Shown here in pieces: positions 17,847-20,326 of a stretch of 50,830 nucleotides of DNA. The notes beneath the pieces are model-generated. The model searched no databases and was not told the DNA's origin. It saw only the letters and a program-made list of their open reading frames with translations. This DNA is from a bacterium (GTDB lineage Bacteria > Patescibacteriota > Gracilibacteria > UBA1369 > PNNO01): positions 1 through 50,830 of the forward strand of contig JAGGUZ010000024.1 of NCBI GenBank assembly GCA_021158225.1, in the 5' to 3' direction. Every line of letters starts with the position of its first letter. The first letter of the stretch is position 1. Made by a program: the position numbers and the translations under genes.

Positions 17847-18473
17847 ATGGAAATCACATGGCATGGAGAACGATGTTTCACAATAAAGGGTAAAGATACA
17901 ACAATTGTTATTGATCCATATGAAAAATCCGATCATATACTAGAAGAGGTAAAAGCTGATACTGTTTTGTTGACTGGAGATTACGATGGAACGGCTGTTT
18001 TACGAAAAGGGGCGGATAAAGCTAAAAAAGTAAATTGGCCGGGAGAATATGAAATTCAAGGTGTCGCAATTGTTGCGATTCCTTCTTATTCAAAACAAGT
18101 ATTGGAAAACGATAAAACTGGAGGAAAGATTATACTTTTCAGTTTTATTGTTGACGGAATAAGAATGTGTCATCTTGGTACTCTTGGAGGTGAAGTTGAC
18201 GAAGAGACAATGGAAAAAATCGGGAATGTCGATGTTTTAATGGTTCCTGCCGCCGGGAAAGAAGCTCTTGATTCAAAGAAAGCTCACGAAATTATAGAAG
18301 CTATTGATCCTCGAATTGTTATTCCGATGAATTACAAAGGCAGTGAAGTTGATGTTCTACTTAAACAGCTTGGGATTACTGATCCGCGAAAAGAAGAGAA
18401 ATTGACTATATCCGGTAAAGCACAACTTCCGGAAGAAAAGACTGAGTTTGTTCTATTAGATGTGTCTCCATAG
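17847..18473 (+). CDS. Metallo-beta-lactamase-fold protein lacking the HxHxDH metal motif
   Basis: A 208-residue protein resembling the UPF0173/UlaG-like branch of the MBL fold. The start MEITWHGERCFTIKGKDTTIVIDPY is family-like, as are MCHLGTLGG and the VDVLMVPAAG and DPRIVIPMNYKGSEVDVL segments. Where active members have T-H-x-H-x-D-H the sequence reads LLTGDYDGTAVL, so the usual zinc ligands are lost and hydrolase activity is doubtful. A binding or structural role is one possibility. The last codons and TAG stop fall inside the 5' acceptor end of tRNA-Arg (10-base overlap), so translation and tRNA processing use the same nucleotides. Confidence 0.8.
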   Translation: MEITWHGERCFTIKGKDTTIVIDPYEKSDHILEEVKADTVLLTGDYDGTAVLRKGADKAKKVNWPGEYEIQGVAIVAIPSYSKQVLENDKTGGKIILFSFIVDGIRMCHLGTLGGEVDEETMEKIGNVDVLMVPAAGKEALDSKKAHEIIEAIDPRIVIPMNYKGSEVDVLLKQLGITDPRKEEKLTISGKAQLPEEKTEFVLLDVSP

Positions 18474-18538
18474 TTTAATGGATAGAACGAGGGCTTCCTA
18501 AGCTCTAAATGGTGGTTCGATTCCGCCTGGGGACACCA
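18464..18538 (+). tRNA. tRNA-Arg (anticodon CCU)
   Basis: A full cloverleaf can be drawn: acceptor GTCTCCA with TGGGGAC, D stem GTTT/GAAC, anticodon stem AGGGC/GCTCT with loop TTCCTAA (anticodon CCT), a four-base variable loop, T stem GGTGG/CCGCC with loop TTCGATT, discriminator A and encoded CCA. It reads AGG codons. The first 10 bases overlap the preceding coding sequence including its stop codon. Confidence 0.95.
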
Positions 18539-18595: not shown

Positions 18596-18624
18596 TTGCT
18601 TTTTAAAAAAGAATATGTTATCAT
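18596..18624 (+). promoter_or_regulatory. Sigma-70-like promoter of the structured RNA/miaB leader
   Basis: TTGCTT at 18596-18601, a 17-base spacer and TATCAT at 18619-18624. Transcription would begin near 18631, exactly where the base-paired region starts, 58 bases after tRNA-Arg. Confidence 0.65.
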
Positions 18625-18630
18625 ATTAGC

Positions 18631-18860
18631 GTAACAGTGATTTTATTAGCCTCGTGTTAATGGAATTAATGTTACACCTCTTGATTCTCTTGCTCTCTAT
18701 ATAAATGGATCCTCGTGATCCTTCTATAAAAAGAGCATTCGGAATCATTCCTTGAATCCTTGGATACCTCGTGTATCTGATGGTTCTAACCCCCTTTAGC
18801 GGGTTCTTATAGTTCATTAGTTTCTTCACTGATACTTGTGGGCCGTAAGGCCCGCTTCCC
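18631..18860 (+). ncRNA. Unrecognised structured RNA: three hairpins with identical CUCGU loops
   Basis: The stretch between tRNA-Arg and miaB has no convincing gene but is dense in helices. A closing stem pairs CAGTGA (18635-18640) with TCACTG (18826-18831). Inside it lie hairpin 1 (18641-18665, about ten pairs, core TTAGC/GTTAA), hairpin 2 (18707-18721, GGATC/GATCC), hairpin 3 (18760-18780, core GATAC/GTATC) and hairpin 4 (AACCC at 18788 with GGGTT at 18801). Hairpins 1-3 have different stems but the same five-base loop CTCGT, spaced 61 and 56 bases apart. A seven-pair hairpin with a GTAA tetraloop follows (18838-18855). I recognise no known family; a stand-alone RNA or a miaB leader are both possible. 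Confidence 0.65.
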
Positions 18861-18955
18861 TTTATATAGGATTTGTTTTGTTTTTACTAAAGCTTGTCTT
18901 TGATAGACATTTTTTATTTATTCTGGTAGTTTTGTGACCTGAAGATATTTTTGTT

Positions 18956-20326
18956 ATGCAAAGAAAATATTATATACAAACCTTGGGGTGCCAAATGAAC
19001 TATTCCGATTCGGAAAGAATCGATAGGGTTTTACAGAATATGGGGTTAACAAAAGTAAATAAAATGGAAGATGCCGACTTAGTTATTTTTAATACTTGTT
19101 CGGTAAGGCAAAAAGCGGAAGACAGAGTATTCGGGCAGATGATAAATATCGGGAAATTACGCAAGAAAAGGCCACATTTAATAGCGGGAATAACCGGATG
19201 TATGGTTCGTAAAACATCAACAAAGAAATCTGAAGAAAAAGATAAACTTATAAATAGGGTTAGCCGAAATGATTTTGTTTTTAGGATTGAAGATTTGCCG
19301 AAATTACCGGGAATTATAAATGAATTATGGCCGGATATTAAACTTAACGAACCTCCTGAAGCAAATATTAAAAATTATTTTAAAATTAATCCGGTATATA
19401 CAAATAAGGCGCAGGCATTTGTTCCTATTGGGACGGGTTGTGATAATTTTTGTACTTACTGTATTGTTCCGTACAGCAGAAAAAGAGAGAAAAGCAGACC
19501 AATGGATGATGTAGTCAAAGAGTGTGACAATTTGGTTAAAAACGGATGTCTGGAAATTACTCTTTTAGGGCAGAATGTAAACTCATACGGACTTTCTAAT
19601 CTAGACAAAAAGACAAATGAATTTAAAGATGTTGACATGCCTTTTGTTCGTTTGTTGGAACAAGTTGATGCTCTTAAGTCAAAAGGGTTAAAGAGGCTTC
19701 GTTTTACATCGAATCATCCAAAAGATTTATCGGATGAGTTAATATCTGCGATGGCGAGATTGGAAACACTAATGCCTTATTTACACTTACCTGTTCAATC
19801 CGGAAGCGATGAAATGCTTAAAAGAATGAATAGGCATTACACGGCCGATTGGTACAGAGATCTTATTAAAAAGCTTAGAAAAGCAGTTCCGGGAATAGCT
19901 ATTTCTACAGATATTATCGTTGGTTTCTGTGGGGAAACAGAAGAAGAATTTATGGATACATACAAATTATTTGAAGATATAGAGTGGGATATGTGCTATT
20001 TGGCTCAATATTCAACTCGTAAAGGAACTTTTGCGAGTCAATATATGGAAGATGATGTGCCGGTTAATATTAAAAGTGAAAGATGGCACAGATTAAATGA
20101 GGTATTAAAAAGATCGGCTCTTAAAGGACATAAAGTTTTCGAAGGAAAAGATGTTGAGGTTCTTGTGGAAAAGTGTGAAAACGGAATTTGTGAAGGAAGG
20201 AGTGAACATTTTAAAACAGTTGTTTTTGATTCCGAAAAGAATTTAACCGGCACGCTTCAAAAGATACATGTGGATAGAGGTAGAGAATGGCAACTTGAAG
20301 GAACTCTTATTCAAGAACAGCTTTAA
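18956..20326 (+). CDS. miaB: tRNA-2-methylthio-N6-isopentenyladenosine synthase MiaB
   Basis: Radical-SAM methylthiotransferase modifying A37 of tRNAs that read UNN codons. The 456 residues contain the UPF0004 domain (YIQTLGCQMNYSDSERI, FNTCSVRQKAEDRVFG, a further Cys in GITGCMVRK), the radical-SAM motif GCDNFCTYCIVPYSR with its CxxxCxxC, GQNVNSYG and the LPVQSGSDEMLKRMNRHYT segment, and a C-terminal TRAM domain (VEVLVEKCENG). It requires i6A from MiaA, which is not in this window. The gene follows the structured RNA by about 95 bases, and its 3' end overlaps convergent alaS by 20 bases. Confidence 0.96.
   Translation: MQRKYYIQTLGCQMNYSDSERIDRVLQNMGLTKVNKMEDADLVIFNTCSVRQKAEDRVFGQMINIGKLRKKRPHLIAGITGCMVRKTSTKKSEEKDKLINRVSRNDFVFRIEDLPKLPGIINELWPDIKLNEPPEANIKNYFKINPVYTNKAQAFVPIGTGCDNFCTYCIVPYSRKREKSRPMDDVVKECDNLVKNGCLEITLLGQNVNSYGLSNLDKKTNEFKDVDMPFVRLLEQVDALKSKGLKRLRFTSNHPKDLSDELISAMARLETLMPYLHLPVQSGSDEMLKRMNRHYTADWYRDLIKKLRKAVPGIAISTDIIVGFCGETEEEFMDTYKLFEDIEWDMCYLAQYSTRKGTFASQYMEDDVPVNIKSERWHRLNEVLKRSALKGHKVFEGKDVEVLVEKCENGICEGRSEHFKTVVFDSEKNLTGTLQKIHVDRGREWQLEGTLIQEQL

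What the first reader, a model, noticed from the sequence alone, without database searches (positions are those of the whole stretch)
18631..18860. Unrecognised structured RNA with three CUCGU-loop hairpins
Three hairpins with unrelated stems (TTAGC/GTTAA, GGATC/GATCC, GATAC/GTATC) share the same loop CTCGT and are spaced about 60 bases apart. All lie within a closing stem (CAGTGA/TCACTG), followed by a GUAA-capped hairpin and preceded by a promoter 6-7 bases upstream of the first pairs. Different stems with a fixed loop is the pattern expected when the loop is read by a protein or another RNA, as in titration RNAs of the CsrB type. I know no family with this loop. It may be a stand-alone RNA or a miaB leader.
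Basis: partly seen in the sequence, partly recalled or inferred. Interest (0 to 1): 0.78.

Follow-up and report, generated by a model that had tools for sequence, protein, structure and literature searches.

The report
New four-hairpin RNA beside miaB
A tiny-genome Peregrinibacteria lineage carries a previously undescribed, evolutionarily conserved small RNA of about 230 bases beside the tRNA-modification gene miaB; the repeated loop that drew attention is probably only a replaceable stabilising cap, and the unpaired C/U-rich linkers between the hairpins look like the working part.

Summary
Three CTCGT-loop hairpins lie at 18631-18786 in a region that folds far better than shuffles (z -6.5); no shuffle of 3000 gave three equal loops. 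It is a real structured RNA. Homologues sit directly upstream of miaB in six of seven genomes of the family (the seventh contig is truncated), twice in tandem in one, and in one genome of another family. In the modelled 3' half, 25 of 34 pairs show changes on both sides. It matches no Rfam family.

The 'fixed loop read by a protein' idea is not supported. Relatives replace CUCGU by UUCG, CUCG, CUUG, GUUA or UUUU, so the loops look like interchangeable caps, and CsrA is absent. The CAGTGA/TCACTG closing stem is not conserved; the fourth element is a long stem, GCGGG...CCCGC.

Best reading: a stand-alone sRNA with its own promoter and a terminator-like 3' hairpin. Capped hairpins are joined by accessible, 84%-pyrimidine linkers (often CCCUUU), probably the contact sites. 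Partner and function are unknown; pairing to Shine-Dalgarno sites is unlikely because this genome lacks them. A miaB leader role remains the main rival.

The parts
18596..18624 (+). Promoter of the RNA: -35 TTGCTT (18596-18601), 17-nt spacer, extended -10 TG-T-TATCAT (18616-18624)
   Evidence: Read from the sequence; aligns with TTGACA-17-TG.TATNAT sites in homologues. Below the threshold of the tool's consensus scan in this genome.
18631..18675 (+). Hairpin 1, loop CTCGT 18651-18655
   Evidence: Folds alone at z -4.9; compensatory changes in G001/G002; loop is UUCG in G005/G010, GUUA in G001, CUUG in G006, UUUU in G003
18676..18681 (+). Linker 1, ACCUCU, unpaired (UCCCUUU in G001 and G003)
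   Evidence: Unpaired probability about 1.0
18682..18747 (+). Hairpin 2, loop CTCGT 18712-18716
   Evidence: loop is UUCG in G001, G003, G005 (both copies), G006 and G010
18748..18753 (+). Linker 2, UUCCUU, unpaired (CCCCUUU-type in G001, G002, G003, G006)
18754..18786 (+). Hairpin 3, loop CTCGT 18768-18772
   Evidence: 12 of 13 pairs change on both sides across 8 sequences, 97% of cells paired; loop is CUUGU in G001, CUCG in G003, UUCG in G005b, G006 and G010
18787..18797 (+). Linker 3, UAACCCCCUUU, unpaired
   Evidence: Unpaired probability 0.98; ACCCC(U)UU in most family members
18798..18856 (+). Hairpin 4, long stem AGCGGGU...GCCCGCU; probable terminator; local alternative GGGCCGUAAGGCCC within 18838-18855
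   Evidence: helices 2-4 have 13 of 21 pairs with change on both sides; the counterpart in G010 is followed by TTTTTTATT
18857..18866 (+). 3' tail UCCCUUUAUA, the end of the RNA or just past it
   Evidence: Terminator-like tail; TTTCCCTTT-type tail conserved in the family
18904..18932 (+). Probable separate promoter of miaB: TAGACA-17-TG-G-TAGTTT
   Evidence: Position conserved in G002 (TGGACA-17-TACTTT) and G001 (TGGACT-17-TAGTTT), both with TGG before the -10; TAGACA-16-TAAAAT before miaB in G010
18956..20326 (+). miaB (UPF0004 + radical SAM); constant downstream neighbour, not part of the RNA
18464..18538 (+). tRNA-Arg(CCU); upstream neighbour in genus g1 and in G010, not part of the RNA

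Best explanation
A stand-alone small RNA gene of about 230 nt. RNA polymerase starts at about 18631 from an extended -10 promoter and stops after hairpin 4. The RNA folds into four hairpins, most of them capped by stable loops of the UUCG (YNMG) type, with CUCGU as this genus's version of the cap. The hairpins space and protect unpaired pyrimidine-rich linkers, often CCCUUU. The linkers and tail are the contact sites, most likely for a single-strand RNA-binding protein that the RNA sequesters or carries, less likely for purine-rich RNA targets. Supported by comparative sequence: the RNA, its structure, its interchangeable caps, and linker accessibility. Inferred: termination at hairpin 4, independence from miaB, the linkers as contacts, and the kind of partner.
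For: Fold z -5.1 to -8.1 in all eight copies. 25 of 34 pairs covary in the 3' half against 6-10 for slid partners; structure taken from G000 alone is also supported on a sequence-only alignment. Each tandem copy in G005 has its own promoter, as does G010. The 3' end is a GC-rich stem with a T-containing tail; in G010 the tail is TTTTTT. A promoter-like site lies between RNA and miaB. No long ORF is shared among copies. Linkers are 84% pyrimidine against 60% overall and mostly unpaired. tmRNA, RNase P RNA and 6S RNA are encoded elsewhere.
Against: No transcript data. The U-tract after hairpin 4 is interrupted in the window (TTCCCTTTAT). The RNA always sits next to miaB even where the upstream gene differs, which suggests a cis link. 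The CCCUUU motif is imperfect in some linkers and absent in G010. No partner was found; a simple search for complementary sites gave nothing convincing.
Confidence: 0.5

Rival explanations
1. A cis-acting leader (attenuator or riboswitch) of miaB: the RNA is the 5' end of the miaB transcript and hairpin 4 is a conditional terminator.
For: Directly upstream of miaB, same strand, in every genome that has it, although the upstream gene changes (tRNA-Arg in g1 and G010, other ORFs in G005 and G006). Two competing pairings share the GCGGG segment: ACCC/GGGU and GCGGG/CCCGC.
Against: Both pairings keep the 3' arm of hairpin 4 paired, so they do not make a terminator/antiterminator pair. The tandem copies in G005 each have a promoter. 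A promoter-like site lies between RNA and miaB. Pairing covers nearly the whole RNA with no conserved unpaired ligand-pocket-like core.
Confidence: 0.25
2. A CsrB-like titration RNA whose repeated CUCGU loop is read by a protein.
For: Three identical loops on different stems in two species; the inner hairpin 2 stem differs strongly between G000 and G002 while the loop is kept.
Against: In the same hairpins of relatives the loops are UUCG, CUCG, CUUG, CUUGU, GUUA or UUUU. No CsrA in seven host genomes. CCTCGTG is not enriched in the genome against its reversed control.
Confidence: 0.1
3. An anti-Shine-Dalgarno sRNA: CCCUUU linkers pair with ribosome-binding sites and block translation.
For: The linkers resemble the 16S tail CCUCCUUU; C-rich unpaired motifs act this way in staphylococcal and rhizobial sRNAs (own knowledge).
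Against: AAAGGG occurs in the 20 nt before 0 of 670 starts and AGGAGG before 1; G is depleted before starts. AAAGGG is not enriched at start regions. No Hfq.
Confidence: 0.06
4. The loops pair with tRNA-Arg(CCU) encoded just upstream: CCUCGU with ACGAGG.
For: Complementary in G000 and over five bases in G002; in G001 the hairpin 3 loop is CUUGU and the tRNA has ACAAG, one matching change.
Against: Post hoc, a single event; ACGAGG is also in two other tRNAs of 39; relatives with UUCG loops keep neither the match nor always the tRNA.
Confidence: 0.03

Closest known systems
CsrB/RsmZ titration RNAs
   Same: Own promoter, several hairpins with a repeated loop in unrelated stems (in this genus)
   Different: Loop is not GGA, is replaced by other stable caps in relatives, and the hosts have no CsrA; the more constant elements are the linkers and hairpin 4
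C-rich-motif sRNAs (staphylococcal UCCC sRNAs, Listeria LhrC, rhizobial 'cuckoo' RNAs with CCUCCUCCC); from own knowledge, not compared here
   Same: Several accessible C/U-rich single-stranded sites between or on stable hairpins; tandem copies
   Different: Those pair with Shine-Dalgarno sites; this genome has almost none
Leader RNAs and riboswitches with intrinsic terminators
   Same: Constant position upstream of one gene, promoter, terminal GC-rich hairpin
   Different: Promoter-like site between RNA and gene, tandem copies with separate promoters, no terminator/antiterminator exchange seen
6S RNA (RF00013)
   Same: Structured RNA of about 200 nt with its own promoter
   Different: A separate 6S RNA is encoded in G000 at C12:20991-21145; the fold here is four separate hairpins

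Membership tests
CsrB/RsmZ-type titration RNA | Host encodes CsrA/RsmA | tested here: not met
   PF02599 absent from 7 host genomes; control finds it in E. coli, B. subtilis and T. maritima
CsrB/RsmZ-type titration RNA | Repeated protein-recognition loop conserved across homologues | tested here: not met
   CUCGU replaced by UUCG and others in the same hairpins
Hfq-dependent base-pairing sRNA | Host encodes Hfq | tested here: not met
   PF17209 absent from 7 host genomes
Anti-Shine-Dalgarno sRNA | Target start regions carry complementary purine-rich sites | tested here: not met
   AAAGGG before 0 of 670 starts; SD motif absent
Any Rfam 15 family | Match at gathering score, or a plausible weak match | tested here: not met
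   Window at gathering score; seven loci at E up to 5 gave only tRNA-region matches and isolated chance matches far below their gathering scores
6S RNA | Covariance-model match at this locus | tested here: not met
   6S found elsewhere in six of the seven genomes, over the cut-off in five
miaB leader / riboswitch | Same transcript as miaB | not testable with these tools
   Needs RNA-seq; sequence shows a promoter-like site in between
miaB leader / riboswitch | Mutually exclusive terminator and antiterminator | tested here: inconclusive
   Alternative pairings exist but both pair the 3' arm
Stand-alone structured sRNA | Covarying structure, own promoter, terminator-like 3' end, no shared coding sequence | tested here: met
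   all from sequence, no transcript evidence

The most novel reading that the evidence does not exclude
A lineage-specific RNA that mimics several copies of the 16S tail (CCUCCUUU-like CCCUUU linkers) on a rigid UUCG-capped scaffold and titrates a ribosomal or RNA-binding protein in a bacterium that starts translation without Shine-Dalgarno sites and has neither Hfq nor CsrA: a protein sponge built on linkers rather than loops.
Probability: 0.1. Interest if true: 0.85.

Novelty: new member of a known kind. Interest (0 to 1): 0.52.

Why it matters
My literature searches found no description of this RNA. It has strong covariation support, a recognisable promoter and a fixed genomic place, in hosts that appear to lack Hfq, CsrA and Shine-Dalgarno signals, so any role must run through other partners. 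It also cautions that identical loops on different stems within one genome need not mean a recognition motif: relatives show the cap being swapped freely.

Tried and rejected
Closing stem CAGTGA/TCACTG: not in the folds, not conserved. Weak BLAST hits in other families and the R1 hit in G032: not followed as homologues; L030 around the latter is not like the RNA. R2 hit in G048 (E 0.0056): appears to lie in a coding sequence, judged chance. Pattern hits GTGATGAT...CTTCGG (mostly judged from the matched letters) and promoter-start pattern hits outside the known copies: no four-hairpin fold, chance. Base pairing with Shine-Dalgarno sites: rejected. Direct complement search for linkers: no convincing target. 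Known RNAs: not tmRNA, RNase P RNA or 6S, which are elsewhere. A simple-pattern search for SRP RNA was uninformative. Literature: nothing found on a Peregrinibacteria RNA of this kind. GWF2_38_29 (L035) has a promoter-like site and hairpins upstream of miaB but no clear relation.

Full report
Observation. The window holds three hairpins with loop CTCGT at 18651-18655, 18712-18716 and 18768-18772. In 3000 dinucleotide shuffles of the region none gave three equal five-base loops on five-pair stems, and no other stretch in a + strand sliding scan of the window does. The region folds at z -6.5 and hairpin 1 alone at -4.9. The proposed closing stem is not formed or conserved. The GUAA hairpin is a weaker alternative to a long stem AGCGGGU...GCCCGCU.

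Homologues. Two other species of the genus (G001, G002) have the RNA between tRNA-Arg(CCU) and miaB. A covariance model of the 3' half (R1) found it in G005 (two tandem copies) and G006. Looking upstream of miaB added G003 and, in another family, G010. A model of all eight (R2), run over 341 class genomes, found only copies of this family plus one chance hit. G010 is recovered at E 4e-9 with less strict filters, but it is a member of the model, so this is not independent. G010 rests on position, promoter and four-hairpin plan more than on sequence. The seventh family genome, G004, has a contig that starts 145 bases before miaB and shows no RNA. The clade is Candidatus Peregrinibacteria/Gracilibacteria by named relatives; L032, named Peregrinibacteria CSMAG_310, has the same first 3000 bases as the G004 locus. 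In a Peribacteria contig (L034) tRNA-Arg is followed by miaB after a short gap with no RNA.

Structure. Eight copies fold into the same four-hairpin plan, z -5.1 to -8.1 (MFE strings). On the model-fitted alignment of hairpins 3 and 4, 93.5% of cells pair and 25 of 34 pairs change on both sides, against 6-10 when partners are slid and 11.2 on average when shuffled. That alignment leans towards the structure. On a plain sequence alignment of three species, with structure taken from the window alone, 84.3% of cells pair and 10 pairs change on both sides, against 38-46% and 1-5 for slid partners.

Loops. Loops of hairpins 1-3: G000 and G002 CUCGU in all three; G001 GUUA, UUCG, CUUGU; G005a UUCG, UUCG, CGUAAAAA; G005b UUCG three times; G006 CUUG, UUCG, UUCG; G003 UUUU, UUCG, CUCG; G010 UUCG three times, and a fourth in hairpin 4. 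Most are stable caps of the UUCG/YNMG type (class recalled from general knowledge). That CUCGU is a YNMG-like cap with an extra U is my inference. The loop is therefore probably a cap, not a fixed recognition site, although its uniformity in two species is not fully explained.

Linkers and ends. Unpaired linkers are 84% pyrimidine against 60% for the whole RNA, and most have unpaired probability near 1. CCCUUU or a near form recurs in linkers 1-3 and in the tail; it is weak in G005b and missing in G010. Promoters: TTGACA-17-TATTAT in G010, TTGACA-17-TATGAT and TTGACT-17-TACAAT for the two G005 copies, all with TG before the -10. The window's site is TTGCTT-17-TATCAT with TG, too weak for the scan. 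The 3' stem scores terminator-like in the window and has TTTTTTATT in G010. A conserved site of the form TnGACn-17-TGGTAnTTT lies between RNA and miaB in the three g1 genomes, and TAGACA-16-TAAAAT in G010, which suggests separate transcription of miaB.

Mechanism. Shown by comparative sequence: a conserved, covarying, apparently noncoding RNA with interchangeable caps. Inferred: that it is transcribed alone and acts through its linkers. Pairing with ribosome-binding sites is unlikely: AAAGGG precedes 0 and AGGAGG 1 of 670 ORFs, with start regions poor in G. A protein partner is therefore preferred, but none is identified. CsrA and Hfq were not found in seven hosts. A leader role for miaB remains possible, because the RNA stays with miaB even where the upstream gene differs.

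Known or new. No Rfam match; tmRNA, RNase P and 6S RNAs lie elsewhere; the open literature searched has no description. I rate it a new family of a known kind, a lineage-specific structured sRNA.

Noticed in passing
whole genome G000 (C2 is the window): Start regions lack Shine-Dalgarno motifs (AGGAGG before 1 of 670 ORFs), are poor in G and rich in A, with TTTAA about 15-17 bases before the start, although the 16S tail reads GGATCACCTCCTTTC; it recalls Bacteroidetes.
   Followed up: partly
window 18464-18538 (tRNA-Arg) and 18650-18656: The CCUCGU loop is complementary to ACGAGG in the neighbouring tRNA-Arg(CCU); in G001 both loop (CUUGU) and tRNA (ACAAG) carry a matching change. ACGAGG is also in two other tRNAs.
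   Followed up: partly
hairpin 1 of G001, G002, G003, G005a, G006: A tandem G-A internal loop (UGAU/UGAU type), as in box C/D or SECIS cores, sits near the base of hairpin 1 in five copies; absent in the window, G005b and G010.
   Followed up: no
L035 (Peregrinibacteria GWF2_38_29), a few hundred bases upstream of miaB: A promoter-like site followed by hairpins, one with GGCTTCGTCC, and a terminator CCCGACC...GTCGGGGTTTTT; unclear relation to this RNA.
   Followed up: no
G000 C22:7675-9139 and 18165 onward: 16S and 23S rRNA genes lie about 9 kb apart on the same strand rather than in a compact operon.
   Followed up: no
G005 C1 (L028 1367-1905): Two tandem diverged copies of the RNA, each with its own promoter, the only duplicated case.
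   Followed up: yes
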